Assembly: GCF_902833045.1 (NCBI RefSeq)
Contig: NZ_CADFDU010000009.1
Coordinates: 218,663 to 282,662 of the forward strand
From: Burkholderia sp. BCC0322
Lineage (GTDB): Bacteria > Pseudomonadota > Gammaproteobacteria > Burkholderiales > Burkholderiaceae
DNA length: 64,000 bases
Direction of reading: 5' to 3'
Positions within the stretch are counted from its first letter, which is position 1, and each line of letters starts with the position of its first letter. The notes below the pieces were generated by a model. That model did not search any database. It saw nothing but the letters and a program-made list of their open reading frames with translations, and was not told the origin of the DNA. This document shows, in pieces, positions 37,695 through 52,186 of the stretch. Position numbers and translations under genes: made by a program.

Positions 37695-37746
37695 GCCGGC
37701 CCTCGTGTCGGTGGCGAATTCAACATGGCGTGGCGCACCGGCCGCG

Positions 37747-38244: not shown

Positions 38245-39729
38245 TCAATTCGCATTCGCTGGCGGCGCGCCGGCCTGTGCGACCGGCGACGCATCGCGCC
38301 AGCCGACGCCGAGCGACTTGTAGAGCGCGATCGCGCCTTGCACCTGCGCGAGCCGGCTGAGTGCGAGCGCATCGCGTGCGCGGTACGTCGCACGCTGCGC
38401 CGTCAGCACCGACAGGTATTCGCCGAGGCCGTTGCGGTACAGCCGCGTCGCGCGCGACTGCGCGTCCTGGCTGCTGTCGACCGCTGCGGCGAGCATGGCC
38501 TGCTGGTTGCGCGCGGCGCCGATTGCCACCAGCGCGTCCTCGACATCGCGAAACGCGCCGCGGATGCGCTGCTCGTATGCCAGCCGGGCGGCCTCGGCCG
38601 CCGCGCGCGCGGCGTCGACGCCGGCTTTCGCGCGGCCGCCGTCGTACAGCGTCTGCGTGCCGTCAAGTGCGACCGACCAGGCGACGCTCGCGCCCGTGAA
38701 CAGGTCCTGCACGAGGCTAGCCGTCGTGCCGAGGCTCAGCGGGATCGCGAAATGCGGAAACTGCTCGGCGCGCGCGACGCCGATCTGCGCGGTCGCGGCG
38801 GCAAGCCGCCGTTCGGCGGCGCGAATGTCGGGGCGTTCGCGGATCACGTCCGACGGCAACGTGACGGGCAATGCGGGCGCGACCGGCAGTGTCGCGCCGG
38901 GCGCGCTCAGCGTGTCGCGCAGCGTTTCCGGAAAACCGCCGACGAGCACGCCGATCGCGTGGGTGAGCTGTGCGACGTCCTGATGCAGCGGTGGCAACGT
39001 CGCCTGCGCGAGCTGCAGTTCGGCCCGCGCCTGCGCGACCGCGAACGACGTGCCGAGGCCGCGCCGGTTCGACTGCTCGGTCAGCCGCCGCGTGGCGTCG
39101 AGGCTCGCGACGTTGTCCGTCGCGATCCGCAGCCGCTCCTGGGTCGCGCGCAGCGCCGCGTAATCCGACGCGAGTTCGGCCAGCAGGCTCACGAGGATCG
39201 CGTGGCGATCGTCGTCGAGCGCATCGATCCGCGCGTCGGCCGATTCGACCGCGCGTCGCGTGCCGCCGAACAGGTCGAGTTCCCACGACGCATCGAAGCC
39301 GAGCCGGTAGGTGCGCGACTGGCCGATCCCGGGCGGCCAGTCGAGCGCCCGGGACGAGCGTAACCCATCGGCATTGCCGCCCGCGGTGACGGTCGGGCCG
39401 AGGCGGCTCGCGATCTGGTCGCGTTCGGCGCGCGCCTGCAGCAGCCGCTGGCGCGCGATCGCGAGATCCTGGTTGTGCGCGATCGCCTGGTCGACCAGCG
39501 CATCGAGCCGGGCGTCGCCGAACGTGCGCCACCAGTTCTGCAACTGCGCGGGGTCGGTGGTGACCGTGTCACGCGGCGCGCTCCAGCCGGGCGGGTGCGC
39601 GGGCTGCGGCGCCACGTAATCGGGGCCGACGGTCGTGCAGGCGGCCAGCGCGCACGCGCAGGCCGCGATGAAGGCGCGCACGCAGCGTGTCGCACGCGGC
39701 GCAGGGAGCGGGTATCGCATCGTCGCCAT
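38245..39729 (-). CDS. Outer-membrane factor of FUSC/AaeAB-type efflux, NodT lipoprotein
   Basis: A 494-residue outer-membrane channel with a lipoprotein signal (AFIAACACALAAC) and OEP repeats (LVDQAIAHNQDLAIARQRLLQARAE, RERPDIRAAERRLAAATAQIG, LYRNGLGEYLSVLTAQRA). It starts two bases after the stop of the membrane fusion protein gene; ATG 39720 is an alternative. It is the exit duct for the efflux pump encoded just upstream (FUSC protein, DUF1656 protein, fusion protein). Confidence 0.92.
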   Translation of the reverse strand: MATMRYPLPAPRATRCVRAFIAACACALAACTTVGPDYVAPQPAHPPGWSAPRDTVTTDPAQLQNWWRTFGDARLDALVDQAIAHNQDLAIARQRLLQARAERDQIASRLGPTVTAGGNADGLRSSRALDWPPGIGQSRTYRLGFDASWELDLFGGTRRAVESADARIDALDDDRHAILVSLLAELASDYAALRATQERLRIATDNVASLDATRRLTEQSNRRGLGTSFAVAQARAELQLAQATLPPLHQDVAQLTHAIGVLVGGFPETLRDTLSAPGATLPVAPALPVTLPSDVIRERPDIRAAERRLAAATAQIGVARAEQFPHFAIPLSLGTTASLVQDLFTGASVAWSVALDGTQTLYDGGRAKAGVDAARAAAEAARLAYEQRIRGAFRDVEDALVAIGAARNQQAMLAAAVDSSQDAQSRATRLYRNGLGEYLSVLTAQRATYRARDALALSRLAQVQGAIALYKSLGVGWRDASPVAQAGAPPANAN

Positions 39730-39731
39730 CT

Positions 39732-40646
39732 TCACATCCACGCGTGCAGCCACGACGCGAGCCGGCCGCGCGGCGTGCGCTCGCGTCCGCGTTCGCCGAC
39801 TTCGACGCTGCACGTCATGCCTGCCGCCAGCAGCACGCCGGCCGGCACCCGGTCAATCTCGATACGCACCGGAATGCGCTGCGCGAGCCGCACCCAGCTG
39901 AAGGTCGGATTGACCGCGGGCAGGCCGAGTTCGTCGAGCGTGCCGTTCTCGTCCGCGATGCCGCGGCCGATGCTCGTCACGTGCCCGCTCAGCAGCGGAT
40001 CGAAGCCCATCAGCCGGATCGTTGCGGGCGCACCCGTCGCGATGCGGCGCAGCTTGGTTTCCTCGAAATAGCCGGTGATCCAGAAGCTGTGCGCGTCGAG
40101 CACCGAGATGCCGGGTTTGCCCTCGACTGCGTAGTCGCCGTGGCGCAGGCGCAGCTGCGTCACGTAACCGTCGACCGGCGAGCGCAGCGTCGTGCGTTCG
40201 AGGTCGAGCCTGGCGACGTCGAGCGCCGCCAGCGCCTTGCGGTGCTCGGCCTGCGCGATCGCCACCGCGCGGCTCGAGCGCTGGATGTCCTCGCGCGGCA
40301 CGAGATCGTCGAGGCCGGTGCGCCGCTGCGCTTCGTCGCGCTTCTGGCGCATCGCCTCGGCGGTCGCGGCGACCTGCGCTTCGGCCTGCTCCACCGCGAG
40401 CGCGAAGCGCTGCGGATCGATCCGGTACAGCACGTCGCCTTTCGCGACACGCTGGTTGTCGACCACCGCGACTTCGACGACGGTGCCCGACACTTCGGGC
40501 GCGATCCGCACGACGTGCGCGCTGACGCGCGCGTCGCGCGTCCACGGCGCGAGCACGTACGCATGCCAGAGCGCGGCGACGAGCACGATCGCGACGGCCA
40601 CCGTGGCGAGCGTCAGCAGGGAGCGGGTGAAGGGTTTGAGCGACAT
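39732..40646 (-). CDS. HlyD/AaeA-type membrane fusion protein
   Basis: A 304-residue adaptor with one N-terminal membrane anchor (about residues 9-30) and a periplasmic part. It has WTRDARVSAHVVRIAPEVSG (the usual TDDAYV-type entry), a coiled-coil hairpin of about 60 residues, the LRSPVDGYV lipoyl motif, and IRLMGFDPLLSGHV. It belongs to the AaeA/FusE-like group that pairs with FUSC pumps. It lies 24 bp after the DUF1656 gene. Confidence 0.92.
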   Translation of the reverse strand: MSLKPFTRSLLTLATVAVAIVLVAALWHAYVLAPWTRDARVSAHVVRIAPEVSGTVVEVAVVDNQRVAKGDVLYRIDPQRFALAVEQAEAQVAATAEAMRQKRDEAQRRTGLDDLVPREDIQRSSRAVAIAQAEHRKALAALDVARLDLERTTLRSPVDGYVTQLRLRHGDYAVEGKPGISVLDAHSFWITGYFEETKLRRIATGAPATIRLMGFDPLLSGHVTSIGRGIADENGTLDELGLPAVNPTFSWVRLAQRIPVRIEIDRVPAGVLLAAGMTCSVEVGERGRERTPRGRLASWLHAWM

Positions 40647-40670
40647 GACGCGAGACGTTCCGACGAGGGG

Positions 40671-40865
40671 CTAGAAGTAGAGGATCAGCGTGGCGACCAG
40701 CACGAGCGAAATCGCGAACTCGAACAGCGCCGGGTGCCACACGCGGCGCAGCACGCCGAGCCGCGCGAGCAGCGCGCGCACGGCCATGTAAAGCGGCACG
40801 GTCGCGCACGCATAGACGAAGAAGGGTGGCAGGTAGATGCCGGCCAGCGGGAATTCACTGAGCAT
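40671..40865 (-). CDS. DUF1656 small membrane protein (AaeX-like)
   Basis: A 64-residue protein with two membrane helices (YLPPFFVYACATVPLYMAV and FEFAISLVLVATLILYF), matching DUF1656/AaeX proteins that always sit between FUSC pump and adaptor genes. The start overlaps the FUSC stop by 11 bases, so translation is coupled. It is a probable pump accessory. Confidence 0.9.
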   Translation of the reverse strand: MLSEFPLAGIYLPPFFVYACATVPLYMAVRALLARLGVLRRVWHPALFEFAISLVLVATLILYF

Positions 40866-42957
40866 CGCGGGCGCGCTCCGGAACGGCGGTGAAATAGGCG
40901 GCGTACGTGTGCAGCAGCACGTGGACGTCGGCGAAGGCGGCCATCAGCCACTTCAGTTCGGTGTTGCCCGGCTGGGCGGCGGCGAGGCCGGCCAGCGCAT
41001 GCGCGGCGCGCCGTGCATGCCGGGCCGCGCGGGTGGGGGCGGCTGCATGCCGCGCGAGGCCGGCGAGCCCGGCGCGCACGCGGCGTCGCGCGGCGTCGGG
41101 CAGCCCGTCGCGCGCGGCGCCGCGGCGGATGCGCAGCAGTTCCTTGCCGACGTGCAGCGCCGCGAGCGCCTCGATGCTCGCCTGCGTCATCGCGGCCGGC
41201 TGGCTCGCGAGCAGCGCGCCGAGCTGCGCGATGCGGTGCTGCTGGCGCTGCTGCCAGCCCGTCGCCGTGACGCGCTTGCCGGCCACGAGCGCGAGCGTGT
41301 CGTCGCGGATCGTGCGGCGCAGCCGCGTGGCGTCGGTGGCCAGGTTGCGCGGCAGGATCAGCCGGAACGTGAGCAGCGTGAGGAAGGTGGCGAGCACCCA
41401 CGCGACCGACTGGTTCAGGAACAGCGCGACGTCGGGCCGGAACGGATTGGTCGCGCCGGTCAGCGTGTTGAACGCGACCAGATACGCGAGCCCCGCGAGC
41501 GAGGTCTTCGGCACGCTCGTCGCGTAGATGCCGGGCATCCAGAACAGCGCGAGTGCCACGACGAGCAGCGGAAAGCCTTCGATGCGCGGCAGGATGCCGA
41601 ACGCGCACACGAACGCGGCCGGCACCGCCAGCACCGTGCCCTTGATGAACGCCTGCGCGCCGGCGGCCGGGTTGCCGGCGGTCGCGAGCAGCGCGCAGTA
41701 CGGCGCGACGACGAGCAGCATCATGTCGCCCTGGTTCCAGCCGGTCGCGAGCCAGAACGCGCCGGAGAGCGCGATCGCGCAGGCCGAGCGCACGCCGTTG
41801 CGCAGCGCGGCGCCCGTGTCGCGGTGAAAGCGCACCCGGGCGGGCCGGTCGCCCGGCCGCGGGCGCTGCAATTCGACGAGCCCGTCGAGCGCCGCGCGGT
41901 AGTCGTCGATCTGTTCGATCAGCCGCTCGCCGGCAATCAGCCACGCCGCCTCGTCGCGCGGATCGCCGAGCGCGATGCCGTCGAGCGCGTCGCGCAAGCG
42001 TTCGCGCGCGTCGCCCAGCAGCGCAAGCGCGTGCGCCGCGCCGCCGGGGCCGGCGCCCAATGCATCGGCGGCGGCCTGCCACGCGGCCGCGAGGCGCGGC
42101 TGCAGCGACGCGACCGCTTGCGCGCCGGGACTGTCGGCCGGCAGCGGCGGCATGCCGCCCGCGAGCGCGCCGAACAGCGACGCCATCCCGTGCCGCACGG
42201 CAGCCGCGCGCTGCGCGAGATCTTCCGATTCGGCCTTGCCGAGCGCGAGCAGATCGTCGATGCCGTAGATGCCGGCGAACAGCGCGTGCCGCTTGTCGTC
42301 GGCGGGCGCCGCCGCGAGGCCGTTGCGCTGCGCGGCGATGACCCGTGCGACGTCGGCCGTGACGCGCGTCACCAGCGCTTCGAGTTTGGCGTGCACGTCG
42401 CGCGTGCCGAGCAGCATCGACACGAGGCTCAGGCACAGCACGCCGATCGCGACCGTCGAGCCGCGCCCGATCACGTGCTCGAAGGTCAGCTCGGGATGCT
42501 GCATCGCGCCGTAGGTCGCGAGGCCGATCGTGTAGCCGGCCACCACGGTGCCCGACGCGCGGAAGTGCCGCAGCAGCGTCATGCCCGCGACGCAGACGCC
42601 GAGCCAGAACGCGAAGCCGAGGATGAACAGCAGCGGCTGCTGCGCGAAGCAACCCATTAGCACGAACGCGACGACCATCCCCGCGATGGTGCCGACCACG
42701 CGCCACACGCCCTTGCCGATCACGGCGCCCTGCACGGGATTGATCACGAGCAGCACCGTGGACGCCGCCGAGTACGGGGTTTCCAGTTCGAGCAGGTACG
42801 CGACGCCGAGCGCGAGCGCGGCGGCAATGACCGAGCGCGCGACATACGCGCCGCGCGGCGTGAAGATGTCGATGCGCGCGATCATCGCCGCGGCCGCGCG
42901 ATTCAGGCGGCGGGGCGGCGCCGCGACGGCGCGCGTCTGATCGGCTGCGTCATGCAC
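40855..42957 (-). CDS. FUSC-family aromatic acid efflux pump (fusaric acid resistance/AaeB-like)
   Basis: A 700-residue inner-membrane protein. It has two blocks of about five membrane helices (residues about 40-185 and 385-530) separated by cytoplasmic regions, and the FUSC hallmarks PYSAASTVLLVINPVQGAVIGKG and RNGVRSACAIALSGAFWLATGW. Known relatives export fusaric acid or p-hydroxybenzoate-type aromatic acids. It is the core of a four-gene export system (pump, DUF1656, adaptor, outer-membrane factor). In this context it is the likely exporter of the aromatic product made by the adjacent genes. The LysR gene is immediately upstream (100 bp), same strand. Confidence 0.93.
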   Translation of the reverse strand: MHDAADQTRAVAAPPRRLNRAAAAMIARIDIFTPRGAYVARSVIAAALALGVAYLLELETPYSAASTVLLVINPVQGAVIGKGVWRVVGTIAGMVVAFVLMGCFAQQPLLFILGFAFWLGVCVAGMTLLRHFRASGTVVAGYTIGLATYGAMQHPELTFEHVIGRGSTVAIGVLCLSLVSMLLGTRDVHAKLEALVTRVTADVARVIAAQRNGLAAAPADDKRHALFAGIYGIDDLLALGKAESEDLAQRAAAVRHGMASLFGALAGGMPPLPADSPGAQAVASLQPRLAAAWQAAADALGAGPGGAAHALALLGDARERLRDALDGIALGDPRDEAAWLIAGERLIEQIDDYRAALDGLVELQRPRPGDRPARVRFHRDTGAALRNGVRSACAIALSGAFWLATGWNQGDMMLLVVAPYCALLATAGNPAAGAQAFIKGTVLAVPAAFVCAFGILPRIEGFPLLVVALALFWMPGIYATSVPKTSLAGLAYLVAFNTLTGATNPFRPDVALFLNQSVAWVLATFLTLLTFRLILPRNLATDATRLRRTIRDDTLALVAGKRVTATGWQQRQQHRIAQLGALLASQPAAMTQASIEALAALHVGKELLRIRRGAARDGLPDAARRRVRAGLAGLARHAAAPTRAARHARRAAHALAGLAAAQPGNTELKWLMAAFADVHVLLHTYAAYFTAVPERARDAQ

Positions 42958-43057
42958 TGCGCTTGCTCCATGAGAAAGGACGAAGCCAGTCTACGGTCGA
43001 GCCATGCATGCCGAACAGTGATGTCTTTGCACTCGACGAGTGCGTGCGACGCATGCG

Positions 43058-43981
43058 TCATGCGTGCGCCGGATGCAGCACCGGCTGGCCCGTGCACAGC
43101 CCGCGCACGACACGCCGCAACCACTGGTGCGCGGGGTCGCTCTGGAAGCGCGGATGCCACGCCTGCGTGATCAGCACGGTTTCGAGCGGCACCGGCAGTT
43201 CGAACGCGCGCACGCCGAGCCCGGCCTGCACCGCGCCGCGCGCGAGATGTTCGGGCAGCGGCAGGATCAGGTCCGACGCCTGCAGCGCGAAGATCGCCGC
43301 ATACGGCGTCGGCACGACGAGCAGCACGTGCCGCGCGAGGCCGCGCGCGGCGAGCGCGTCGTCGATCGGCCCGGCCGACTTGCCGCGCCGCGAGACGCCG
43401 ATATGCGGCCAGCGCGCGAAGCGCTCGGGCGTGATGTCGTCGTCGAAGATCGGGTGGTCGTCGCGCGCGAGGCCGACGAAGGTCGTCGTGAACAGCGGCT
43501 GCACGCGAATTTCCGGCCCCAGGCGGCGCGATGCGCTGATGAACAGGTCGATGCGGCCGCTGCGCAAGGCATCGTCGTCGATGTCGTCTTCCTCGGGCGT
43601 GAAGCGCAGCATCGCGCGCGGCATCCCGCGCGCCATCTCCTCGAGCAGGCGGCTGCTGTGCAGGCCGACGAAGATGTCGTTCGCGCGCACGTTGAACTGC
43701 TTGTCGAGCGTGCCGAGATCGATTTCCGCGGACGGGGCGAGCAACTGCGACGCGCGCTCCACGGTTTCGCGCACGACGCCGCGCAGCTCGAGCGCGCGCG
43801 GCGTCGGCACCATCTTGCGGCCGGCTTGCACGAAGATCGGGTCGCCGACCGTTTCGCGAATGCGCGCGAGTGTGCGGCTCATCGCGGGCGGGCTCAGGTT
43901 CATGCGGCGTGCGGCGCCGACGACGCTCCCCTCTTCGAGCAGCGCGTCGAGCGAAATCAGCAGGTTCAGGTCGGGTGCCAT
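43058..43981 (-). CDS. LysR-family transcriptional regulator
   Basis: A 307-residue regulator. The N-terminal helix-turn-helix is NLLISLDALLEEGSVVGAARRMNLSPPAMSRTLARIRE, followed by an effector domain with DLFISASRRLGPEIR and PLPEHLARGAVQAGLGV. I chose the ATG at 43981 (MAPDLNLL). It lies between the flavin reductase gene and the efflux operon, all leftward. LysR regulators next to AaeAB-type pumps commonly respond to the exported aromatic acid, so it probably senses the cluster product. Confidence 0.92.
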   Translation of the reverse strand: MAPDLNLLISLDALLEEGSVVGAARRMNLSPPAMSRTLARIRETVGDPIFVQAGRKMVPTPRALELRGVVRETVERASQLLAPSAEIDLGTLDKQFNVRANDIFVGLHSSRLLEEMARGMPRAMLRFTPEEDDIDDDALRSGRIDLFISASRRLGPEIRVQPLFTTTFVGLARDDHPIFDDDITPERFARWPHIGVSRRGKSAGPIDDALAARGLARHVLLVVPTPYAAIFALQASDLILPLPEHLARGAVQAGLGVRAFELPVPLETVLITQAWHPRFQSDPAHQWLRRVVRGLCTGQPVLHPAHA

Positions 43982-44103
43982 CGGCTTCTCCGTGTCATCG
44001 CGTGCATGCGGCGCAATGGTAATGCGGGATAGGCGCGCGCAGCGTGACTGCAACGCACGCAACGATTGCGCGCGGCATCACGCGTGACGCACGCATCGGG
44101 GTG

Positions 44104-44628
44104 TCATTGGCCGGCGCCGGCATCGGGCGACAGCGAGCGGACGGCGGCGAATGCGCCGTTCACGTACATCAGCGGATTCACGTCGTCGGACATCGCGACG
44201 CGCGTGACCCGTCCGACCAGGATCGAATGCGAGCCGACCTCGACCTGTTCGAGCGTGTCGCAGAAGAACGACGTCTGCGCGTTCTCGAGGTAGGGCAGGC
44301 CGGTCGCCGCGTCGGTGCGCCACGCGTCGTGCGCGAAACGCGCGTCGGAGCCCGTCGTGCTGCACGCGAGCGCGAGCGGCACGTGGCAGCTTCGCAGCGC
44401 GTTCACGCAGAAGCGCCGGTGGCCGGTGATCGACGCGTGAATGCTGGCGCGCCGGTTGATGCACACCAGCACGGTCGGCGGATCGAGCGCGACCGACGTG
44501 AACGAGCTGGCGGTCAGCGCGCACGGTGCGGCCGCGGCGCCATCGCCGCCGGTCGTGACGATCGTGACGGTGGCGGCTACGCCGCGCATCGCCTGTTTCA
44601 GTTGCTGCGCAATGTCCACGGTGTTCAT
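44104..44628 (-). CDS. Flavin reductase (HpaC-like)
   Basis: A 174-residue NAD(P)H:flavin oxidoreductase. It begins with LKQAMRGVAATVTIVTTGG, then the flavin-binding ALTASSFTSVALDPPTVLVCINRRASIH, FCVNAL, and the late GSHSILVGRVTRVA. Such proteins supply reduced FMN or FAD to a two-component monooxygenase; the luciferase-like monooxygenase gene two positions upstream is the natural partner. It lies 68 bp after the FAD monooxygenase gene, same strand. Confidence 0.9.
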   Translation of the reverse strand: MNTVDIAQQLKQAMRGVAATVTIVTTGGDGAAAAPCALTASSFTSVALDPPTVLVCINRRASIHASITGHRRFCVNALRSCHVPLALACSTTGSDARFAHDAWRTDAATGLPYLENAQTSFFCDTLEQVEVGSHSILVGRVTRVAMSDDVNPLMYVNGAFAAVRSLSPDAGAGQ

Positions 44629-44696
44629 CCTGATGCGGTCCTGTCACGAGGGCCCCGGTGCCGCGCGGCTCGCGCCACACGGCGCCGGGGCGGGCG

Positions 44697-45923
44697 TCAA
44701 AGCTGGTACGCGTCGGCCCAGGTCCAGTGGTAGGACTTGAAGTCGGCGCGGCGCGACTTGAGCTCGGCGTCGCGCGCCTGTTGCTCGGGGCCGTCGGGCA
44801 GGTGGAACACGCCGCCGTTGCCGGCCGACGCAAGCTGGATCCGCGCGCTGCGGTCGATCCGCAAGCGCTGGTACTCGACCAGCGCGGCGCCGAGCGCGTC
44901 CTTCGACGCGAGCCCCGTCACGCACCGGCCGAGCACGACCGCGTCCTCGAGCGCCTGCGCGGCGCCCTGCGACTGGTACGGCAGCATCGGATGGCACGCG
45001 TCGCCGAGCAGGCACACGCTGTCCCACACCCAGCGCGTGAGCGGCTGGCGGTCGTGCAGCGACCAGCGGCTCAGGTCCGACGCGCAGCGGATCAGCCCGA
45101 CGAGGCGCGGATCCCAGCCGTCGAGCTCGGCCTCGAGCGTCGCGCGGTCGCCCTTGCTGCTCCACGATTCGCGCGTGCTGCCGTCGCCCGGCACGATCAC
45201 GACGAGATTCAGCAGCCGGCGATCGCGCACCCAGTAATGGATCGCGTGCCGGCCGGGCCCGAGCCAGATCGTCACCTGCGGTTCCTTGACGATCTCGAAG
45301 ACGGGCGAGCGCGGATCGATCGCATCGGCGTCGATCAGCGCGCGATACGCGTCGTCGCCGCTGTAGTGCGGCGCGTCGTCGCCGAGCAGCGCGTGACGCA
45401 GCGTCGAATGAATACCGTCGGCCGCGACGACGAGATCTGCGCGCCAGCGCGTGCCCGCCGCATCGACGAGCGTCGCGCCGTCCGGCCCGCACGCGTCGAG
45501 CCCGCGCACCGCGATGCCGCCGAGCACGGCGACGGGCGGGCCGGCCGTGTACGGGTCGCGCACGGCGTCGAGCAGCGCGGCATGCAGGTCGGCGCGATGC
45601 GCATTCCAGTAAGGCGCGTTGAAGGCGGCCTCGACGTCGTCGCCGAGCGGGAAGGCGCCGAGCAGGCTGCCGTCCTGCCAGCGGCGGCGGATCGTCGCGG
45701 TCGGGGCGACGGCGGCCAGCCGCTGCCGGTCGAGCACGCCGAGCGCGCGCAGCGCGCGCGTGGCGTTCGGCACGACCTGCAGCCCCGCGCCGACTTCACG
45801 GAATGCCCGGCTCTGCTCGAGGACGGTGACCCGATGGCCGGCACGGCGCAGCGCGAGCGCGGCGGCCAGGCCGCCGATGCCGGCGCCGACGACGATCGTG
45901 TCGAGTGACAGGGAGGGTGTCAT
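44697..45923 (-). CDS. FAD-dependent aromatic hydroxylase (salicylate/6-hydroxynicotinate monooxygenase type)
   Basis: A 408-residue single-component flavin monooxygenase. Features are the Rossmann motif VVGAGIGGLAAALALRRAG, the mid DG motif in VVAADGIHSTLR, and the second FAD motif GDACHPMLPYQSQGAAQALEDA. Relatives hydroxylate, often with decarboxylation, phenolic or pyridine acids. An aminohydroxybenzoate made by the divergent genes would be a fitting substrate (inference). Start uncertain: ATG 45923 begins the domain; ATG 45959 lies four bases from the previous stop. Confidence 0.88.
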   Translation of the reverse strand: MTPSLSLDTIVVGAGIGGLAAALALRRAGHRVTVLEQSRAFREVGAGLQVVPNATRALRALGVLDRQRLAAVAPTATIRRRWQDGSLLGAFPLGDDVEAAFNAPYWNAHRADLHAALLDAVRDPYTAGPPVAVLGGIAVRGLDACGPDGATLVDAAGTRWRADLVVAADGIHSTLRHALLGDDAPHYSGDDAYRALIDADAIDPRSPVFEIVKEPQVTIWLGPGRHAIHYWVRDRRLLNLVVIVPGDGSTRESWSSKGDRATLEAELDGWDPRLVGLIRCASDLSRWSLHDRQPLTRWVWDSVCLLGDACHPMLPYQSQGAAQALEDAVVLGRCVTGLASKDALGAALVEYQRLRIDRSARIQLASAGNGGVFHLPDGPEQQARDAELKSRRADFKSYHWTWADAYQL

Positions 45924-45963
45924 GGGCGAGTTTGCGGTGGGTCCGGAAGGGATCGGCATGGCG

Positions 45964-47022
45964 TCACAGTCCCGGCAGCACGTCGCGGGCGAACACCTCC
46001 AGGTTGTTGCTCATCAGCTCGTACGGCTGCGCGCCATAGTCGATGTGCCACAGGATCGCGTCGAGCCCGAGATCGGCTTCCAGCGCGCGAATGCGCTGGC
46101 GCACGGTGTCGGGCGTGCCGAGCACGGCGGTCGCGTCGAGGTCGGCCGTGTCCATCCCGCCCATCTTGTTCTTCATCGCCTCGTTGTAGCCCTGGTAGGC
46201 CGACGACTGCACCTGGTCCCACGATTTCGCGGCTTCCGCGAAATAGCGCCAGTGATGGCGCAGGCGCGGCTCCGCGAGCGCCAGCGCGTGCGCGTCCGAC
46301 GTGCCGATCATCAGCGGGATGCTGATCGCGACCTGCGGCCGGCGGCCGGTGTGGCCGTGATGGCGCTCGAACGTCTCGCGATAGAGCGCCACCATCTCCT
46401 GCGTCTTCGCGAGCGCGGCCTTGCGCGGCGGCGCGGCCATCAGCAGGTTGAAGCCGCGCTCGCCGATCCACTCGAAGCTGGACGGCGTGAGCAGCGCGGC
46501 GACCCAGACCGGCGGGCGCGGCTGCTGCGTCGGGCGCGGCAGCGATTGCGCGTCGCGATAGCGGAAGAACGGCGTGTCCTCGCTGACCGATTCCTCGGCG
46601 AGCAGGCGCACCGTCGCGTCGATCGTCTGCTGGAAGCGCGCCTTGCTCGAATCGAGATCGATGCCGAACGCATCGAATTCATACGGCAGGAACGCGCGCG
46701 CGAAGCCCAGCTCGAGCCGCCCGTTCGAGATCGCGTCGAGCTGCGCGGCCTCGGCCGCGAGCTGGATCGGATGATGGAACGACGCCTGGATGCCGCCCGT
46801 CATCAGGCGGATCGACTTCGTCTGCGCGGCCGCGGCCGCGAGGAACATCAGCGGCGACGGGCTGTAGCCGCCGTACGGCTTCAGGTAGTGCTCGGTCATC
46901 TTCACGTACGCGTAGCCGAGCCGGTCGGCCAGCGCGCTGAGCTTCAGCGCGTGCGCGTAGTAGTCGGCCGCCGGGCGGTCGGCCGGGCCGGTATCGGGCA
47001 AAAAGGACACGCCGAACTTCAT
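45964..47022 (-). CDS. Luciferase-like (LLM-class) flavin-dependent monooxygenase
   Basis: A 352-residue TIM-barrel monooxygenase of the bacterial luciferase family, which uses reduced flavin. It has MKFGVSFLPDTGP, YVKMTEHY, PSPLMFLAAAAAQTKSIRL, HHPIQLAAEAAQLDAISNGRLELGFARAF and a late LGTPDTVRQRI. Relatives catalyse oxidation, N-hydroxylation or desulfonation of small molecules. The ATG at 47022 has an AGGTG site. It is the first gene of the leftward operon and is divergent from the aldolase gene, with a 19-bp palindrome between them. Confidence 0.9.
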   Translation of the reverse strand: MKFGVSFLPDTGPADRPAADYYAHALKLSALADRLGYAYVKMTEHYLKPYGGYSPSPLMFLAAAAAQTKSIRLMTGGIQASFHHPIQLAAEAAQLDAISNGRLELGFARAFLPYEFDAFGIDLDSSKARFQQTIDATVRLLAEESVSEDTPFFRYRDAQSLPRPTQQPRPPVWVAALLTPSSFEWIGERGFNLLMAAPPRKAALAKTQEMVALYRETFERHHGHTGRRPQVAISIPLMIGTSDAHALALAEPRLRHHWRYFAEAAKSWDQVQSSAYQGYNEAMKNKMGGMDTADLDATAVLGTPDTVRQRIRALEADLGLDAILWHIDYGAQPYELMSNNLEVFARDVLPGL

Positions 47023-47136
47023 AGACACCTCACAGGTTGATGTGCTGCCGTTGTCTGCAAAGGGGAACCGATGCCGCGTCGAATGCGTCCCCCGGTCGGG
47101 AAACAGGATCGCTCGCAATGTACTTGCAAGGATGAT

Positions 47137-47155
47137 CCAATCATAGGATGATTGG
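47137..47155. promoter_or_regulatory. 19-bp palindromic operator in divergent promoter
   Basis: CCAATCATAGGATGATTGG is a perfect 8-3-8 inverted repeat between the luciferase-like gene (start 47022) and the aldolase gene (start 47295). A related sequence, CGAATGATCGGATGATAGG on the minus strand, lies at 52222-52240 upstream of the FadR-type regulator gene. The pairing suggests this regulator controls both arms and itself. Confidence 0.65.
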
Positions 47156-47294
47156 GTCTATGCAAGTCTTACACGATGCAAGATTTGCTGCAAGCGTTGC
47201 TCGGTTGTTGCTCCAGTTCCGCCCGCAAGCGGGCACTCCGGGGGCAGGCTGAAGTGCACGGGCCGGCCTCTCCATTTCCGGCGAGGAATCAAGG

Positions 47295-48095
47295 ATGGAC
47301 GCTCTTCTATCGGTTTCTGGCAAGGCGCTCAGGATGCGGCGGGTGGTGCGCGCCGCGTCGGGCAAGTGTCTGATGGTGCCGCTCGACCATTCGCTCGCGG
47401 ACGGGCCCATCGCCCATCCGCAGCAGTTGCGGCAACTGGTTGGCGACATCGCCGCGCACGGCGGCGACGCGATCGTCGTGCATCGCGGCCGCGCGCGTTT
47501 CCTGTCGCCCGACGTGCTGAGCGATCTCGCGCTCGTGGTGCACCTGAACGGCTGCACGCGCTACGCGGAGGACGCGAACGCGAAGACGCTGTTCGCGAGC
47601 GTCGAGGATGCGCTGGCATGCGGCGCGGACGCGGTCAGCGTGCACGTGAATCTCGGCTCGAAAACGGAAAGCCAGCAACTGCTCGACCTGAGCCGCATCG
47701 CGACCGAGTGTGCGCGCTGGTCGCTGCCGCTGCTCGCGATGATCTATCCGCGCGGCCCGGGCCTCGGCGATCGTCCGCAGACCGAACTGATTGCCCACGC
47801 GGCGAACGTCGCGGCGGATCTCGGCGCCGACATCGTCAAGCTGCCGTACAGCGGCGACGCCGCGAGCATGGCCGACATCATCGCCGGCTCGTCGCTGCCG
47901 GTGCTGGTCGCGGGCGGCGCGAAGCTGCCGGAAGACGAGTTCGTCGCGTTCACGTCGCGCGTGATGCACGCGGGGGCGCTCGGCATTGCAGCCGGTCGCA
48001 ACGTGTTCGCCGCGCCGAAAGCCGCACCGCTGATCCGCCGCCTGTCCGATGCCGTGCACGGCGTCGACCGGCGCGCCGCGCACCTGGCCGCCTGA
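47295..48095 (+). CDS. ADH synthase / DhnA-type class I aldolase
   Basis: A 266-residue class I aldolase resembling archaeal 2-amino-3,7-dideoxy-D-threo-hept-6-ulosonate (ADH) synthase. Key residues are kept: MVPLDHSLADGPI (Asp of the active site), MIYPRGPG (Tyr) and DIVKLPYSGD (Schiff-base Lys). In archaea this enzyme starts an alternative shikimate entry; in actinomycetes the homologue GriI condenses aspartate semialdehyde with dihydroxyacetone phosphate toward 3-amino-4-hydroxybenzoate. The DHQ-synthase-II-like genes follow at once, as in both pathways. A bacterium of this kind already has the normal shikimate pathway, so secondary metabolism is the likelier role. A GAGGAA site precedes the ATG. 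Confidence 0.88.
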   Translation: MDALLSVSGKALRMRRVVRAASGKCLMVPLDHSLADGPIAHPQQLRQLVGDIAAHGGDAIVVHRGRARFLSPDVLSDLALVVHLNGCTRYAEDANAKTLFASVEDALACGADAVSVHVNLGSKTESQQLLDLSRIATECARWSLPLLAMIYPRGPGLGDRPQTELIAHAANVAADLGADIVKLPYSGDAASMADIIAGSSLPVLVAGGAKLPEDEFVAFTSRVMHAGALGIAAGRNVFAAPKAAPLIRRLSDAVHGVDRRAAHLAA

Positions 48096-48147
48096 GCCGG
48101 TGCGCCGGGCCGTCGCGCCCGGTTTCTTTCGATCATCGAGGGTTTCC

Positions 48148-49212
48148 ATGTATCGCTATCCGTGGATCGACCTGCGCGCGCTCGGCGCGCAGGCAGGCGC
48201 CGTCGCGGCCGACGCAGCGAGGGCCGGCGCGTGCCGCTTCGTGGTGGCCGAGGCCGCGCGCGACACGTGCGCGCCCGCCGTGGCCGCGCAACTGGCCGTT
48301 TCGACGGCGGGCGTCGCGACGCTGGTCGACGACGCGCATGCGCCGCTCGCCGGCGTTCGCGTGAGGATCGACGGCGCGGCCGATTTCGACGCCGCGCGCA
48401 CCGCGATCGCGCGGCACGCGCTCGTGCTGCTCGACTACGCGCTCGCGACCACCGTGCCGCTCGAGCGCCTGCTCGCGAGTGTCCGCGATGCCGCGTGCCG
48501 CATCGTCGTGTCGCTGGCCGATCCGCACGGCGCGGCCTACCTCGCGCGCAAGCATGCGCAGTCGCCGGTCGACATCGCGTTCGCACCGCGCGATGCGGCC
48601 GCGTTGCGCGGCGTGCTGGCTGCCTGCGGCGAGCTGCGTCCGCGCGAGCCGCTGAAGCTGAAGACGTTCGAGGTGCAGCGCGTCGAGCCGCTCGGCGCCG
48701 GGCTGCATGCGGTGATCGACGGCTGTTCGCAGCTGGACGGCGAAGAGTGCGTGCTGGCCGGCGCGAGCGCGACCAGCATGCTGCTGGTCGTCGCGGCCGG
48801 CGCCGCGCACCCGCCTGGCCAGCCGCTCACGTTCGGCATCGACGCGGGCTCGGCCGAATCGTTCGTGTTCTGCGGCGGCGACCGCGCGCGCCAGCTTTCG
48901 CTGCTGCGTTCCGGCGAGCGGATCCTGACGGTCGGCGCGGCAGGCGACACGCGCGCGATCGTGGTCGGCCGCGTGCGGATCGAATCCGCGCCGCTCGTCG
49001 CGCTGCACACGCGCAGCGCATCCGGCGCGAACACGCGCGTCGTGATGCGCGGCGACCGTGCGGTGCAGTTCCGGACCGACGACGGCGCGCGCGTCGGTCT
49101 CGCCGATGTCGCGCCCGGTGTCCGGCTTGCCGGCTACGAACCGGGCGCCGGCTGGGTGGATTGCCGGATGAGGGCCGCCGCGTCGCGTTTGGCCGTTTCC
49201 GTCAGCCGCTAG
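48148..49212 (+). CDS. Divergent 3-dehydroquinate synthase II homologue
   Basis: A 354-residue protein, weakly similar to the next gene product. It starts MYRYPWIDLRALGAQAG and keeps the C-terminal layout (VQRVEPLGAGLHAVIDGCSQL, RSGERILTVG, AIVVGRVRIESAPLVAL). It departs at conserved points: family GSYS reads GASA, and the TRPFRVNAGxxHAY stretch reads LTFGIDAGSAESFVF. It is therefore either a second cyclase with altered chemistry or a non-catalytic partner. It starts 52 bp after the aldolase stop, with a GAGGG site. Two tandem paralogues suggest a heteromer or two different steps. Confidence 0.72.
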   Translation: MYRYPWIDLRALGAQAGAVAADAARAGACRFVVAEAARDTCAPAVAAQLAVSTAGVATLVDDAHAPLAGVRVRIDGAADFDAARTAIARHALVLLDYALATTVPLERLLASVRDAACRIVVSLADPHGAAYLARKHAQSPVDIAFAPRDAAALRGVLAACGELRPREPLKLKTFEVQRVEPLGAGLHAVIDGCSQLDGEECVLAGASATSMLLVVAAGAAHPPGQPLTFGIDAGSAESFVFCGGDRARQLSLLRSGERILTVGAAGDTRAIVVGRVRIESAPLVALHTRSASGANTRVVMRGDRAVQFRTDDGARVGLADVAPGVRLAGYEPGAGWVDCRMRAAASRLAVSVSR

Positions 49213-49262
49213 TTTCATCCTGTCATTCAACCTGCGTTATCCCCTTTCGAAGGAGATTGGCC

Positions 49263-50363
49263 TTGAAGAAGCTTTCCTGGATTGACCTGCGCAACATCGG
49301 CGAGCTCGCGGACGAGATCACCGAGGAAGCGCTGCATGTCGGCGTGTCCGCATTCGTCGTGAAGGATGCGGAGCAGGCCGGCCGGCTGCCGCCGAGCGCG
49401 CGCAAGGTCGCGGTCGTCGATCGGCAGCCGGCCGATGCCGCGCTGCTCGAGCAGGTGCAGATCGTCCTCGTGAAGGATGGCCTGCCGGTCGATTTCGCGG
49501 TGCCGGACGGCGTCGAACTCGGCGTGTTCATCGAGGTGACGGGCGAGGCGACGCTCACCCGTGCGTGCGAGCTGTCGACGTCCACGCCGTGGCTGCTCGT
49601 CGAATTCCTGCAGGACCCGAGCAAGATCCCGCTCGAGATCCTGCTGGCGGCCGCCGATCGAGCGACGGGCGAGCTGATCACCGTCGTCGCCGACCTGGAG
49701 GATGCGGAGGTCACGCTGAACGTGCTGCAGCGCGGCCCCGAAGGCGTGCTGTTCACGCCGACGCAGGTCGGGCAGGCCACGCAACTGGTGTCGATCTGCA
49801 GCGACACGGTCGAGGATCTGCAGCTCGAGGAAATCGAGATCGTGGGGCTCACGCACCTGGGGCCGGGCGAACGCGTGTGCGTCGATACCTGCTCGCGCTT
49901 CGAGCAGGACGAGGGCATCCTCGTCGGCTCGTATTCGACCGGCATGATCCTCATCAGCAGCGAGACGCACCCGCTGCCGTACATGCCGACGCGCCCGTTC
50001 CGCGTGAACGCGGCCGCGCTCCATTCGTACGTCGTCGCGCCGGACAACCGCACGCGCTATCTCGCCGAGCTCGAATCGGGCGCGGAGATTCTTGCCGTCA
50101 ACGTGCAGGGCAAGGCGCGCCGCGTCGTGGTCGGGCGCGCGAAGGTCGAGACGCGTCCGCTGCTGCTGATCGAGGCGAAGAATGCCGCCAATCGCGCGAT
50201 CAACATCATCGCGCAGGACGACTGGCACGTGCGCGTGCTCGGGCCGAAGGGCAGCGTGCACAACATCACGGAGCTCAAGCGCGGCGACCGCATCCTCGGC
50301 TACACGCTCGATGCGCAGCGCCACGTCGGCTACCCGATCCGGGAGTTCCTGCACGAGCAGTGA
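49263..50363 (+). CDS. 3-dehydroquinate synthase II family enzyme (AroB'/GriH-like)
   Basis: A 366-residue enzyme of the archaeal DHQ synthase II family. It begins KKLSWIDLRNIGELADEITEEAL and has LGPGERVCVDTCSRFEQDEGILVGSYS, TRPFRVNAAALHSYVV, YLAELESGAEILAV and VVGRAKVETRPLLLIEA, all close to archaeal sequences. Family members make 3-dehydroquinate from ADH or, as GriH, 3-amino-4-hydroxybenzoate. The start is a TTG at 49263: AGGAG lies 7 bp upstream (49251-49255) and no better start exists. It follows the divergent paralogue by 50 bp. Confidence 0.88.
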   Translation: MKKLSWIDLRNIGELADEITEEALHVGVSAFVVKDAEQAGRLPPSARKVAVVDRQPADAALLEQVQIVLVKDGLPVDFAVPDGVELGVFIEVTGEATLTRACELSTSTPWLLVEFLQDPSKIPLEILLAAADRATGELITVVADLEDAEVTLNVLQRGPEGVLFTPTQVGQATQLVSICSDTVEDLQLEEIEIVGLTHLGPGERVCVDTCSRFEQDEGILVGSYSTGMILISSETHPLPYMPTRPFRVNAAALHSYVVAPDNRTRYLAELESGAEILAVNVQGKARRVVVGRAKVETRPLLLIEAKNAANRAINIIAQDDWHVRVLGPKGSVHNITELKRGDRILGYTLDAQRHVGYPIREFLHEQ

Positions 50364-50440
50364 TCCGCATGCTTCATTGACGATGCGATCGCCCGGTGCG
50401 TCACGCGCCGGCGCGGTCGATTCATGTTCAGGAGTACTTT

Positions 50441-51463
50441 ATGGAAAATGCGGCAAAACAGGTGCTGGACACGCTGTTCGGACGGTGGCGCAGCCGGATC
50501 CTGTATGCGGGCACGCGGCTCGGCGTGTTCGATGCGGTCACGACGGACGCGCCGGTGTCGTCGGCCGCGCTCGCAGCGAAGCTCGACGTCGACGAGCCGC
50601 TGCTGTATCGGTTGCTGCGCGCGCTTGCGTCGCTCGGCCTGCTCGACGAGGATACGCGCCGCGGCTTCCGGGCCACCGCGTCGGGGGCGCTGCTGCATGC
50701 GGACGCCCCGAGTACGCTGCGCGATTTCGTGCTGCTGCAGGAAGGCCCCGAGCACTACGCGATCTGGGCGCACCTGCCCGACATGGTGCGCGAGGGACAG
50801 CAGAACGGCTTCATCCGCGAGTTCGGCGCGATGGCATTCGACTATGCGAAGGACCACGAACGCTACCGCACCGATTTCAAGCGCGCGATGTCGAGCTTCT
50901 CGACCGTGCAGTCGGAACAGGTCGTCGATGCGCTGCGCGACGTCACGTTCGCGCCGGGCACGCATGCGTGCGACATCGGCGGCGGCCAGGGGCACATGCT
51001 GTGCAGCCTGCTGCGGCGTTTTCCCTCACTGACCGGCGTCGTGTTCGACCTGCCCGAAGTGATCGACGGCGATGCGGATGACTGGGCGCAGCGGATGGGC
51101 GTGAGCACACGCTGCAGCAAGGCGGGCGGCAACATGTTCGATGCGGTGCCGGCGGCCGACGTCTATCTGCTGAAGCTGATCTTGCATGACTGGAACGACG
51201 ACGAGTGCGTGGCGATCCTCAAGCGGGCACGCGAAAGCGCCCGGGACGGCGCGCGCGTGTTCGTGATCGAACGGGTCGTGCCGGCGCCGGGCGTCGCGCA
51301 TTTCTCGAAGCTCTACGACATCCACATGATGTGCTGGGGCAGCGGCTGCGAGCGCACGCGCGACGAATACGACGCGTTGCTCGGCGCCGCCGGCTGGCGG
51401 CCCGCCGGGGTACGCGCCGCGCCGGACGGGCAGATCGACGTGATCGAGGCCGTCGCGGCGTAG
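50441..51463 (+). CDS. SAM-dependent O-methyltransferase (acetylserotonin/caffeate type)
   Basis: A 340-residue methyltransferase. The N-terminal dimerisation and winged-helix part has YAGTRLGVFDAVTTDAP and LLYRLLRALASLGLL. The catalytic part has the SAM motif HACDIGGGQGHMLCSLL, acidic FDLPEVIDG, and the catalytic-His region LLKLILHDWNDDECVAIL. Relatives methylate phenolic hydroxyls of natural products. It is last in the rightward arm, 77 bp after the cyclase gene, and would tailor an aminophenol product. An AGGAG site precedes the ATG at 50441. Confidence 0.9.
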   Translation: MENAAKQVLDTLFGRWRSRILYAGTRLGVFDAVTTDAPVSSAALAAKLDVDEPLLYRLLRALASLGLLDEDTRRGFRATASGALLHADAPSTLRDFVLLQEGPEHYAIWAHLPDMVREGQQNGFIREFGAMAFDYAKDHERYRTDFKRAMSSFSTVQSEQVVDALRDVTFAPGTHACDIGGGQGHMLCSLLRRFPSLTGVVFDLPEVIDGDADDWAQRMGVSTRCSKAGGNMFDAVPAADVYLLKLILHDWNDDECVAILKRARESARDGARVFVIERVVPAPGVAHFSKLYDIHMMCWGSGCERTRDEYDALLGAAGWRPAGVRAAPDGQIDVIEAVAA

Positions 51464-51478
51464 CGCGGGCCGGGCGCG

Positions 51479-52186
51479 TCAGGCGGCGGGCGTCTCGCGG
51501 GTCTCGAGCCAGGTCATCTGGGGCTTGAGGATCGCGAGCGTGGCGCGAACCGCCTTGTTCTCGTCGCGTTGTTCGATCGCGTCGAGCACCGCCTGGTGCG
51601 CCCGCATGTCCGGCTCGGGAATCTCGGCCTCGTCGAGTTCGACGAGGATGTCCTCGACGTTCGCGAGGATCGAGCCGGAGAAGTAACGATACAGCGCTTC
51701 CAGCGCGTGATTGTGCGATGCGGCGGCCACGGCGATGTGAAACGCGCGGTCGCGCTCGACGAACTTCTTCACGTCGCGCGTCGCTTCGCGCTCGCCGCGT
51801 GCCTTCAGCAGCTTGCGCAGCGTCGCGAGATCCTCGTCGGTGCGCCGGCGCGCCGCGTAGCGCGCGCATTCCGTTTCGAGCATGCACTGCAGCTCGAGAT
51901 GGTCGCTGCGCGCGGCGCGATCGACATTGCGCATCGTCTCCGCCGGATCGACGTTGCGGCGCACATAGGTGCCGTCGCCCTGGCGCACTTCGAGCACGCC
52001 GGAATACGCGAGCGTGCGGACTGCCTCGCGCACCGTATTGCGCCCGACTTCGAGCTGCTTCGCGAGATCGAGCTCGGTCGGAATGCGCTGACCGACGCGC
52101 CAGATGCCGGAAGTGATATTGGATTTGAGGATCTCGATCGCCGAATCGACGAGCGAGTGTCGGATGGCCGGGGGCAGGCTTGACAT
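51479..52186 (-). CDS. GntR/FadR-family transcriptional regulator
   Basis: A 235-residue regulator. The N-terminal winged helix has LVDSAIEILKSNITSGIWRVGQRIPTELDLAKQL and VGRNTVREAVRTLAYSGVLEVRQGDGTYV. The C-terminal all-helical FCD domain has DRAFHIAVAAASHN, with metal-ligand-type Asp and His, and MRAHQAVLDAIEQRD. It faces the methyltransferase gene tail to tail (15 bp between). The operator-like sequence at 52222-52240 lies 36-54 bp before its ATG and resembles the 47137 palindrome, so it likely controls itself and the divergent biosynthetic promoter. Confidence 0.92.
   Translation of the reverse strand: MSSLPPAIRHSLVDSAIEILKSNITSGIWRVGQRIPTELDLAKQLEVGRNTVREAVRTLAYSGVLEVRQGDGTYVRRNVDPAETMRNVDRAARSDHLELQCMLETECARYAARRRTDEDLATLRKLLKARGEREATRDVKKFVERDRAFHIAVAAASHNHALEALYRYFSGSILANVEDILVELDEAEIPEPDMRAHQAVLDAIEQRDENKAVRATLAILKPQMTWLETRETPAA

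What the first reader, a model, noticed from the sequence alone, without database searches (positions are those of the whole stretch)
38245..52186. Uncharacterised aromatic metabolite gene cluster with dedicated export and control
An ADH-synthase-type aldolase, two DHQ-synthase-II homologues and an O-methyltransferase run divergently from a luciferase-like monooxygenase, a FAD aromatic hydroxylase, a flavin reductase, LysR and a four-part FUSC/AaeAB efflux system; a FadR-type regulator closes it. GriI and GriH homologues of this kind make 3-amino-4-hydroxybenzoate in Streptomyces, and FUSC pumps export hydroxybenzoate-type acids. Prediction: an oxidised, O-methylated aminohydroxybenzoate-derived product. 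I know of no described Burkholderia product with this set.
Basis: partly seen in the sequence, partly recalled or inferred. Interest (0 to 1): 0.88.

Follow-up and report, generated by a model that had tools for sequence, protein, structure and literature searches.

The report
Candidate genes for the siderophore cepabactin
This gene cluster most likely makes, exports and takes back up cepabactin, a small iron-binding antibiotic of Burkholderia cepacia whose genes had been reported as unknown, and it seems to do so by diverting an aminobenzoate pathway so that a pyridine ring forms instead.

Summary
The genes are there as described. Read as a siderophore cluster, the enzymes fit cepabactin (C7H9NO3): aldolase + DHQS-II give a C7H7NO3 ring; a decarboxylative FAD hydroxylase, an LLM monooxygenase with flavin reductase, and an O-methyltransferase give C7H9NO3. 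The FAD enzyme's best solved relative is a decarboxylative para-hydroxylase, as predicted beforehand. Papers of 2017 and 2024 call cepabactin's genes unidentified. B. cepacia ATCC 25416, a reported producer, carries the whole cluster; a B. vietnamiensis and a B. cenocepacia, species reported as non-producers, lack it. One draft genome lost the biosynthetic genes but kept the receptor. No experiment was run; ring closure through nitrogen and step order are inferred.

The parts
38245..39813 (-). NodT-type outer-membrane efflux channel (start uncertain; frame overlaps the adaptor gene)
   Evidence: PF02321 147 bits, TIGR01845 347 bits over cut-off 210
39732..40646 (-). AaeA/HlyD-type periplasmic adaptor
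   Evidence: best NCBIfam model AaeA, 257 bits, below cut-off 400
40671..40865 (-). AaeX/DUF1656-type small membrane protein
   Evidence: AaeX model 30 bits, below cut-off 82
40855..42957 (-). FUSC-family inner-membrane exporter
   Evidence: PF04632 471 bits
43058..44062 (-). LysR-type regulator
   Evidence: PF00126, PF03466
44104..44628 (-). flavin reductase, proposed partner of the LLM monooxygenase
   Evidence: PF01613 127 bits; best NCBIfam model RutF 111 bits, below cut-off 255
44697..45959 (-). FAD hydroxylase, proposed oxidative decarboxylase of 5-hydroxy-6-methylpicolinate
   Evidence: PF01494; nearest solved protein decarboxylative vanillate 1-hydroxylase 8x38, 301 bits
45964..47118 (-). 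luciferase-like (LLM) flavin monooxygenase, proposed ring-N hydroxylase
   Evidence: PF00296 191 bits; nearest solved 7bip, 231 bits
47130..47155 (.). conserved operator-like site between the two arms (palindrome CCAATCATaggATGATTGG inside)
   Evidence: identical in the window and 9 other genomes and in ATCC 25416; 0 expected by chance in the window
47295..48095 (+). DhnA/GriI-type aldolase
   Evidence: PF01791; PRK07226 301 bits over cut-off 241; aligned over 8-255 to MJ0400 (2qjg) with the DH, MYPRG and DIVK segments kept
48148..49212 (+). DHQSa, degenerate DHQS-II paralogue
   Evidence: PF01959 118 bits; 37 of 76 invariant residues kept; dN/dS 0.30-0.58; no stop in 10 of 10 genomes
49242..50363 (+). 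DHQSb, DHQS-II/GriH-type cyclase (exact start uncertain, within about 25 bases)
   Evidence: PF01959 339 bits; BagC/FevH model 375 bits, below cut-off 750; dN/dS 0.06-0.13
50396..51463 (+). SAM-dependent O-methyltransferase
   Evidence: PF00891 159 bits, PF08100
51479..52186 (-). GntR/FCD regulator
   Evidence: PF00392, PF07729
52375..52387 (+). Fur-like site before the receptor
   Evidence: exact in 11 of 11 aligned loci, one change in ATCC 25416; 1 hit in the window, 0.01 expected
52489..54732 (+). TonB-dependent siderophore receptor, co-inherited with the cluster
   Evidence: TIGR01783 416 bits over cut-off 223.5; >=82% in 10 of 10 cluster-bearing genomes

Best explanation
The unit 38245-54732 is a complete cepabactin siderophore cluster: synthesis, export, control and uptake. 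Proposed route (inferred from families and the product's structure): the GriI-type aldolase joins aspartate semialdehyde to dihydroxyacetone phosphate; DHQSb, helped or steered by DHQSa, expels phosphate and water, and the amino group rather than a carbon closes the ring, giving 5-hydroxy-6-methylpicolinate, an isomer of 3,4-AHBA. The FAD hydroxylase replaces the carboxylate, which is para to the 5-OH, by OH. The LLM monooxygenase with its flavin reductase hydroxylates the ring nitrogen. The O-methyltransferase methylates the 5-OH. The FUSC pump exports the product, and ferric cepabactin returns through the adjacent TonB receptor, under Fur-type iron control. LysR and GntR proteins control the arms. 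Shown here: gene content, synteny, co-inheritance of the receptor, presence in a reported producer strain and absence from genomes of two species reported as non-producers, and the formula balance. Not shown: any enzyme activity, the C-N closure, the order of steps, the regulators' targets.
For: Formula balance from DHAP + aspartate semialdehyde to C7H9NO3 with each activity used once; cepabactin's structure and formula (PMC9958762, PMC7912996 passages). FAD hydroxylase: four of the five best-scoring solved relatives bear names, three of them decarboxylative vanillate 1-hydroxylase, 4-hydroxybenzoate decarboxylase and, acting on a pyridine, 6-hydroxynicotinate 3-monooxygenase, predicted before the search. 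Receptor co-inherited in 10 of 10 genomes; Fur-like site. G033 lost the synthetic genes and kept the receptor. Full cluster in B. cepacia ATCC 25416, a reported producer (LMG 1222T); absent from B. vietnamiensis LMG 10929 and a B. cenocepacia, species reported as non-producers. Genes reported as not identified.
Against: No enzyme or mutant data. Sequence cannot tell C-N from C-C closure by DHQS-II; NCBIfam places DHQSb nearest a subfamily that includes 3,4-AHBA synthases. Phenotype match rests on few species; with 10 of 65 carriers the type strain would be a carrier by chance with probability about 0.15. Production was reported in only 12% of 65 strains then called B. cepacia (PMC9958762 passage). 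B. cenocepacia uses cepabactin without FhuA or FeuA and the B. cenocepacia genome tested has no close copy of this receptor, so another receptor can do it. No Fur-like site stood out before the synthetic genes. N-hydroxylation by an LLM enzyme is an inference.
Confidence: 0.82

Rival explanations
1. One reading: 3,4-AHBA (benzene ring) is made, then decarboxylated or hydroxylated and O-methylated to an aminophenol or aminohydroquinone-type product, exported by the FUSC pump.
For: GriI/GriH-type families; the same bookkeeping gives an isomeric C7H9NO3 from 3,4-AHBA; FUSC/AaeAB pumps are linked to hydroxybenzoates by model names.
Against: Leaves the co-inherited siderophore receptor, its Fur-like site and the receptor-keeping deletion in G033 without a role; no such product is known to me in these species, while cepabactin is reported from the type strain that carries the cluster.
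Confidence: 0.1
2. A different, undescribed iron-binding product (for example another hydroxypyridone or an N-oxidised aminophenol) is made, and cepabactin's genes lie elsewhere in B. cepacia.
For: The receptor and Fur-like site speak for a siderophore in general; enzyme specificities are not tested.
Against: The set matches cepabactin with no activity missing or left over except the degenerate DHQSa.
Confidence: 0.06
3. A catabolic or detoxifying cluster for aromatic acids with an efflux relief valve.
For: FAD hydroxylases of this family and AaeAB-type pumps often serve catabolism (names).
Against: No ring-cleavage family in the block by Pfam; a siderophore receptor is bound to it; biosynthetic aldolase, cyclases and O-methyltransferase present.
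Confidence: 0.01

Closest known systems
Cepabactin (antibiotic BN-227), 1-hydroxy-5-methoxy-6-methyl-2(1H)-pyridinone
   Same: Proposed product; formula and functional groups match the enzyme set; reported from B. cepacia ATCC 25416T, which carries the cluster.
   Different: No gene cluster was described for it in the papers seen, so there is no reference cluster to compare with.
3,4-AHBA pathway of grixazone, bagremycin/ferroverdin (GriI/GriH, BagB/BagC)
   Same: DhnA-type aldolase plus DHQS-II family cyclase (gene roles PMC6692506 and PMC11429834 passages).
   Different: BagB/FevI 251 of 500 bits and BagC/FevH 375 of 750 bits, both below cut-off; a second, degenerate DHQS-II; no o-aminophenol oxidase family in the block by Pfam; siderophore receptor attached; proposed ring is pyridine.
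Decarboxylative 4-hydroxybenzoate/vanillate 1-hydroxylases and 6-hydroxynicotinate 3-monooxygenase
   Same: FAD hydroxylase aligned over nearly its whole length, 301, 269 and 193 bits.
   Different: Substrate predicted to be a picolinate; not tested.
FhuA-type hydroxamate siderophore receptors
   Same: TIGR01783 member; FhuA is the best NCBIfam model (652 bits).
   Different: Below the FhuA cut-off of 803; a separate cluster-bound lineage.
Fusaric-acid (5-butylpicolinate) FUSC pumps, e.g. FuaABC of Stenotrophomonas
   Same: FUSC transporter with adaptor and outer-membrane channel; substrate of FuaABC is a picolinate (PMC3517613 abstract and passages).
   Different: Here part of a biosynthetic cluster; substrate untested.

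Membership tests
Cepabactin biosynthesis and uptake cluster (proposed) | Present in a strain reported to make cepabactin | tested here: met
   G359 = B. cepacia ATCC 25416 by plasmid identity; all genes found, none with a stop in the aligned part
Cepabactin biosynthesis and uptake cluster (proposed) | Absent from species reported not to make it | tested here: met
   B. vietnamiensis LMG 10929 (G023) and one B. cenocepacia (G367) lack it; non-production is a species-level report, other strains untested
Cepabactin biosynthesis and uptake cluster (proposed) | Enzymes able to account for each bond of C7H9NO3 | tested here: met
   by family and formula only; activities untested
Cepabactin biosynthesis and uptake cluster (proposed) | Deletion abolishes cepabactin | not testable with these tools
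   needs mutants and LC-MS
3,4-AHBA synthase (BagC/FevH equivalog NF041224) | Score over curated cut-off (750 bits) | tested here: not met
   DHQSb 375 bits, DHQSa 84 bits
DHQS-II family (PF01959, NF002625) | Score over curated cut-off and conserved motifs | tested here: met
   DHQSb 339 and 569 bits, all 76 invariant residues; DHQSa 118 and 385 bits but only 37 of 76
ADH synthase equivalog (TIGR01949) | Score over cut-off (299.45 bits) | tested here: not met
   246 bits; the broader PRK07226 subfamily is met, 301 over 241
TonB-dependent siderophore receptor (TIGR01783) | Score over cut-off (223.5 bits) | tested here: met
   416 bits
FhuA equivalog (NF007465) | Score over cut-off (803 bits) | tested here: not met
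   652 bits
Cremeomycin-type diazo pathway | Nitrite-forming CreD/CreE and the CreM-type AMP ligase | tested here: not met
   no lyase or AMP-binding family among the Pfam hits of the genes scanned in 32358-57194; an AMP-binding gene lies far off at 27001-28596; roles from PMC11429834 passages

The most novel reading that the evidence does not exclude
A DHQS-II-family cyclase, paired with a degenerate paralogue, makes a pyridine rather than a benzene ring: the amino group of the aldol product of aspartate semialdehyde and dihydroxyacetone phosphate closes the ring to 5-hydroxy-6-methylpicolinate. This would be a new bacterial pyridine route and the source of a siderophore made without a peptide synthetase.
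Probability: 0.65. Interest if true: 0.88.

Novelty: new variant of a known kind. Interest (0 to 1): 0.8.

Why it matters
Cepabactin (BN-227) has been in print since 1979, and a 2017 review could not infer its distribution because no genes were known. The cluster would supply the genes, so carriers can be predicted from genomes (B. stagnalis LMG 28156, B. paludis MSh1, B. lata R-18110 and others); it names a candidate receptor, which was missing (for B. cenocepacia); and it offers a directly testable new way of building a pyridine ring from the 3,4-AHBA machinery. As far as I recall, few siderophores are made without an NRPS or NIS synthetase.

Tried and rejected
Considered and set aside: a cremeomycin-like O-methylated aminohydroxybenzoate (no nitrite or ligase genes among the families found); grixazone/ferroverdin-like products (no aminophenol oxidase family found); tropolone synthesis (the FAD enzyme scores 255 bits to tropone 2-monooxygenase but 301 to a decarboxylative vanillate hydroxylase); catabolism.

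Led nowhere: PMC12195442 (B. stagnalis YJ-2) came up for BN-227, but among the 12 of 15 places shown the term appears only in a reference-list entry, so it is no production evidence. A 19-base Fur consensus scan gave at best 12 of 19 matches; three of the five best hits lie before the receptor, two of them overlapping, and none convinces alone. Papers with the aldolase name and Burkholderia: none. The named genome search did not list B. cepacia, nor four other carriers found. A receptor homologue (61%) in G369 has no other cluster gene in the 16 kb examined. DHQS-II homologues at 43-44% in 4 of 65 genus genomes and at 43-45% in 4 genomes outside the genus among 299 of the family are too distant; in the one whose genes I scanned (G013) the neighbours are of another kind. 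A search of 299 genomes of the phylum with DHQSa found only G001 and a weak match in G192. Structure prediction of DHQSb never ran, so active sites rest on sequence alone. In one search (and in the script) my DHQSa query started out of frame; the start was corrected to 48148 from then on and those DHQSa rows are dropped. The script found no loci and gave nothing.
Full report
What is there. Leftward: LLM monooxygenase, FAD hydroxylase, flavin reductase, LysR regulator, then FUSC, a DUF1656/AaeX-type protein, an AaeA-like adaptor and a NodT-type channel. Rightward: DhnA-type aldolase, two DHQS-II proteins, O-methyltransferase. A GntR/FCD gene faces them. After a gap of 302 bases a TonB-dependent siderophore receptor follows (52489-54732; TIGR01783 416 bits, cut-off 223.5; best NCBIfam model FhuA, 652 bits, cut-off 803).

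Boundaries by comparison. A search of 65 genomes of the genus for the second DHQS-II protein (DHQSb) found it at 93-98% in 10, at 43-44% in 4 and not in 51. In these 10 the block from outer-membrane channel to receptor is syntenic (for B. paludis the locus holds only 189 residues of the channel). No stop lies in the aligned part of the aldolase, DHQSa, DHQSb, FAD hydroxylase, LLM, flavin reductase or O-methyltransferase gene in any of the 10; one stop lies in the channel frame of two genomes (B. lata R-18110 and G017; its start is uncertain) and in LysR of G026. The neighbours outside are conserved only in some: the gene at 36954 in 4 of the 7 loci that could show it, in ATCC 25416 and at least partly in D-99; the gene at 54827 in D-99, B. 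paludis, ATCC 25416, G033 and partly B. lata R-18110 (locus end) but not in SRS-46 or B. stagnalis. The unit is therefore channel to receptor.

The receptor goes with the cluster. It is >=82% identical in 10 of 10 cluster-bearing genomes; in G026 it reads in two frames, at 88%. Of the 55 genomes without DHQSb, G033 has it at 97% and G369 at 61%. Of the other 53, 28 of 29 (E <= 1e-100) have only matches of 44% or less and one has none; of 24 (E <= 1e-150) one has a 41% match and 23 have none at that limit.

G033 is informative although its assembly is only 82% complete. On one contig it keeps the first part of FUSC (to the contig end), LysR, the last bases of the flavin-reductase gene, the promoter region with the very start of the LLM gene (75% identical), the last 65 or so bases of the O-methyltransferase gene, the GntR gene, the receptor (97%) and the next gene. 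It has no match there to the FAD hydroxylase, aldolase, DHQS-II or O-methyltransferase proteins, and no DHQS-II anywhere in the assembly. Loss of synthesis with retention of uptake is what one expects of a siderophore non-producer that still uses the product.

Control sites. Between the arms a 26-base stretch holding the palindrome CCAATCATaggATGATTGG is identical in the window and 9 other genomes and in ATCC 25416; between these genomes DHQSa falls to 68% identity. Which regulator binds it is not known. Before the receptor lies AATGATTCCCATT, exact in 11 of 11 aligned sequences, G033 included, with one difference in ATCC 25416. Its likeness to Fur boxes is recalled. Support found here: AATGATTCYCATT occurs once in the window even with one mismatch allowed, against 0.01 expected, and four times in the 9-Mb genome G001 against none for the reversed control; by my reading of the frames three of those four lie before iron-uptake genes (this receptor, another TonB receptor, a ferric-siderophore binding protein) and the fourth by a DAO-type oxidoreductase.

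From genes to product. Described 3,4-AHBA pathways condense aspartate semialdehyde and dihydroxyacetone phosphate with a GriI-type aldolase and a GriH-type synthase (PMC11429834, passages). That adduct less phosphate and two waters is C7H7NO3. Closed carbon to carbon it is 3,4-AHBA; closed through the amino nitrogen onto the ketone it is 5-hydroxy-6-methylpicolinic acid, an isomer. Replacing the carboxylate by hydroxyl, hydroxylating nitrogen and methylating one oxygen gives C7H9NO3, and from the picolinate this is 1-hydroxy-5-methoxy-6-methyl-2(1H)-pyridinone, cepabactin (structure PMC9958762, passage; formula PMC7912996 Table 3). The synthetic activities are each used once, with the degenerate DHQSa left as a helper. 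The same bookkeeping allows a benzene-ring isomer, so the formula alone does not decide. A route through ADH (a deoxyketose phosphate donor) with an added oxidation would also reach the picolinate and is not excluded.

A test made after the idea was written down. The solved proteins closest to the FAD enzyme are a decarboxylative vanillate 1-hydroxylase (301 bits), a protein named 4-hydroxybenzoate decarboxylase (269), an FAD protein without a functional name (265), tropone 2-monooxygenase (255) and 6-hydroxynicotinate 3-monooxygenase (193), a pyridine-carboxylate enzyme. That the first, second and last replace a carboxylate para to a hydroxyl is partly recalled. The related 3-hydroxybenzoate 6-monooxygenase, which does not decarboxylate (recalled), is the best NCBIfam model (282 bits, cut-off 459), so the assignment rests on nearest relatives only.

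The two cyclases. Over seven DHQS-II rows (two DHQSb, three from Streptomyces plasmids, one Sinorhizobium, G030) 76 columns are invariant. DHQSa of the window keeps 37 and has lost most of the ETHPLPYM..RPFRVN, QDDWHVR and RHVG motifs. Between the window and B. stagnalis, SRS-46 and G009 its dN/dS is 0.55, 0.58 and 0.30, against 0.13, 0.11 and 0.06 for DHQSb, yet it has no stop in 10 of 10 genomes. It is under weaker but real constraint: a partner, a scaffold or a re-specialised cyclase. That a changed second copy goes with a changed ring closure is an inference.

Distribution against reported production. Cepabactin was detected in B. cepacia R-24575 and LMG 1222T only, of 14 isolates (PMC7912996 Table 3, passages); B. 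cepacia ATCC 25416T is given as a producer (PMC9958762, passage). That LMG 1222 and ATCC 25416 are the same type strain is recalled. BN-227 was also isolated from Burkholderia sp. MBAF1239 of the B. cepacia complex (PMC6009182, passages; genome not examined). A 2017 review lists B. cepacia +, B. cenocepacia -, B. vietnamiensis -, the other species with a question mark in the part shown, and says that the genes remain to be identified (PMC5681537, passages). Genome G359 has a 209,807-base contig whose first 20,000 bases are identical to the first 20,000 of NZ_CP012984.1, the ATCC 25416 plasmid of the same length. Its 1.196-Mb contig carries the whole cluster (the contig's two ends overlap by 8.2 kb, and the copy of DHQSb at the very start is cut and broken by the contig end, while the other copy is complete). 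B. vietnamiensis LMG 10929 (G023), a B. cenocepacia soil strain (G367), B. ambifaria AMMD (G012), a B. pyrrocinia (G373) and a B. contaminans (G024) were named the same way and lack DHQSb. So 3 of 3 species with a stated phenotype in that review agree, but for the two negatives by species, not by strain. With 10 of 65 carriers, a chance hit on the type strain alone has probability about 0.15. Named carriers besides: B. lata R-18110, B. paludis MSh1, B. stagnalis LMG 28156, Burkholderia sp. SRS-46 and D-99. The window's own species is not known; its cluster DNA is 95.6% identical to the closest genome compared (G014).

Results against. B. cenocepacia can use cepabactin without FhuA or FeuA (PMC10866019, passages), and the B. 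cenocepacia genome tested here has no close copy of this receptor (G367): another receptor can take it up. No Fur-like site stood out before the synthetic genes in a simple scan. Production was reported in only 12% of 65 strains then called B. cepacia (PMC9958762, passage), so even if this is right many strains lack or do not express it. B. cepacia was not in the named list, but neither were four other carriers, so that list was incomplete.

Exporter. The FUSC family is named for fusaric acid, 5-butylpicolinic acid, and a FUSC-type tripartite pump contributes to resistance to it in Stenotrophomonas (PMC3517613, abstract and passages). The predicted first aromatic intermediate is a picolinate. 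This is suggestive only.

What is in print. A search for cepabactin listed 34 papers; I saw passages of 8 of them (PMC10866019, PMC5681537, PMC7912996, PMC10826400, PMC9958762, PMC8560942, PMC12004965, PMC10702961) and only the listing of the rest. Searches for BN-227 and gene phrases, the aldolase name, hydroxypyridone siderophores since 2024 and DHQS with picolinate listed no gene assignment that I could see. [quoted passage not shown] The library holds only open-licence papers, so a report elsewhere cannot be excluded.

Verdict. Observation confirmed, interpretation partly supported. The product is most likely cepabactin (0.82). The new part, if true, is pyridine closure by a DHQS-II pair (0.65).

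Noticed in passing
L036 1-6431 (genome G033, contig C34): Natural loss of the synthetic genes with the receptor, GntR and LysR genes kept; looks like a siderophore user that no longer makes the product.
   Followed up: partly
L021 2294-14718 (G013); DHQS-II at similar identity also in G030, G358, G382: A different DHQS-II/aldolase cluster in four Burkholderia genomes; in G013 with YcaO, an AMP ligase fused to a haem-oxygenase-like domain, a methyltransferase, an FAD aromatic hydroxylase and an SDR.
   Followed up: partly
L028 4921-15172 (Sinorhizobium medicae plasmid): DHQS-II (39% to DHQSb) beside adenylation, cobalamin-dependent, SagB-type and 4-HPA 3-hydroxylase-type genes on a conjugative plasmid.
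   Followed up: no
L026 11025-14584 (Streptomyces sp. Mut1 plasmid): Aldolase and DHQS-II (55% to DHQSb) directly followed by an aspartate kinase gene, in line with use of aspartate semialdehyde.
   Followed up: no
L077 7044-9266 (G369): A 61% homologue of the receptor in a genome without the cluster; no other cluster gene within the 16 kb examined.
   Followed up: partly
window 36954-37844 (-): 296-aa frame without a Pfam family and with a very weak phosphopantetheinyl-transferase hit (21 bits), between the cluster and an RND pump.
   Followed up: no
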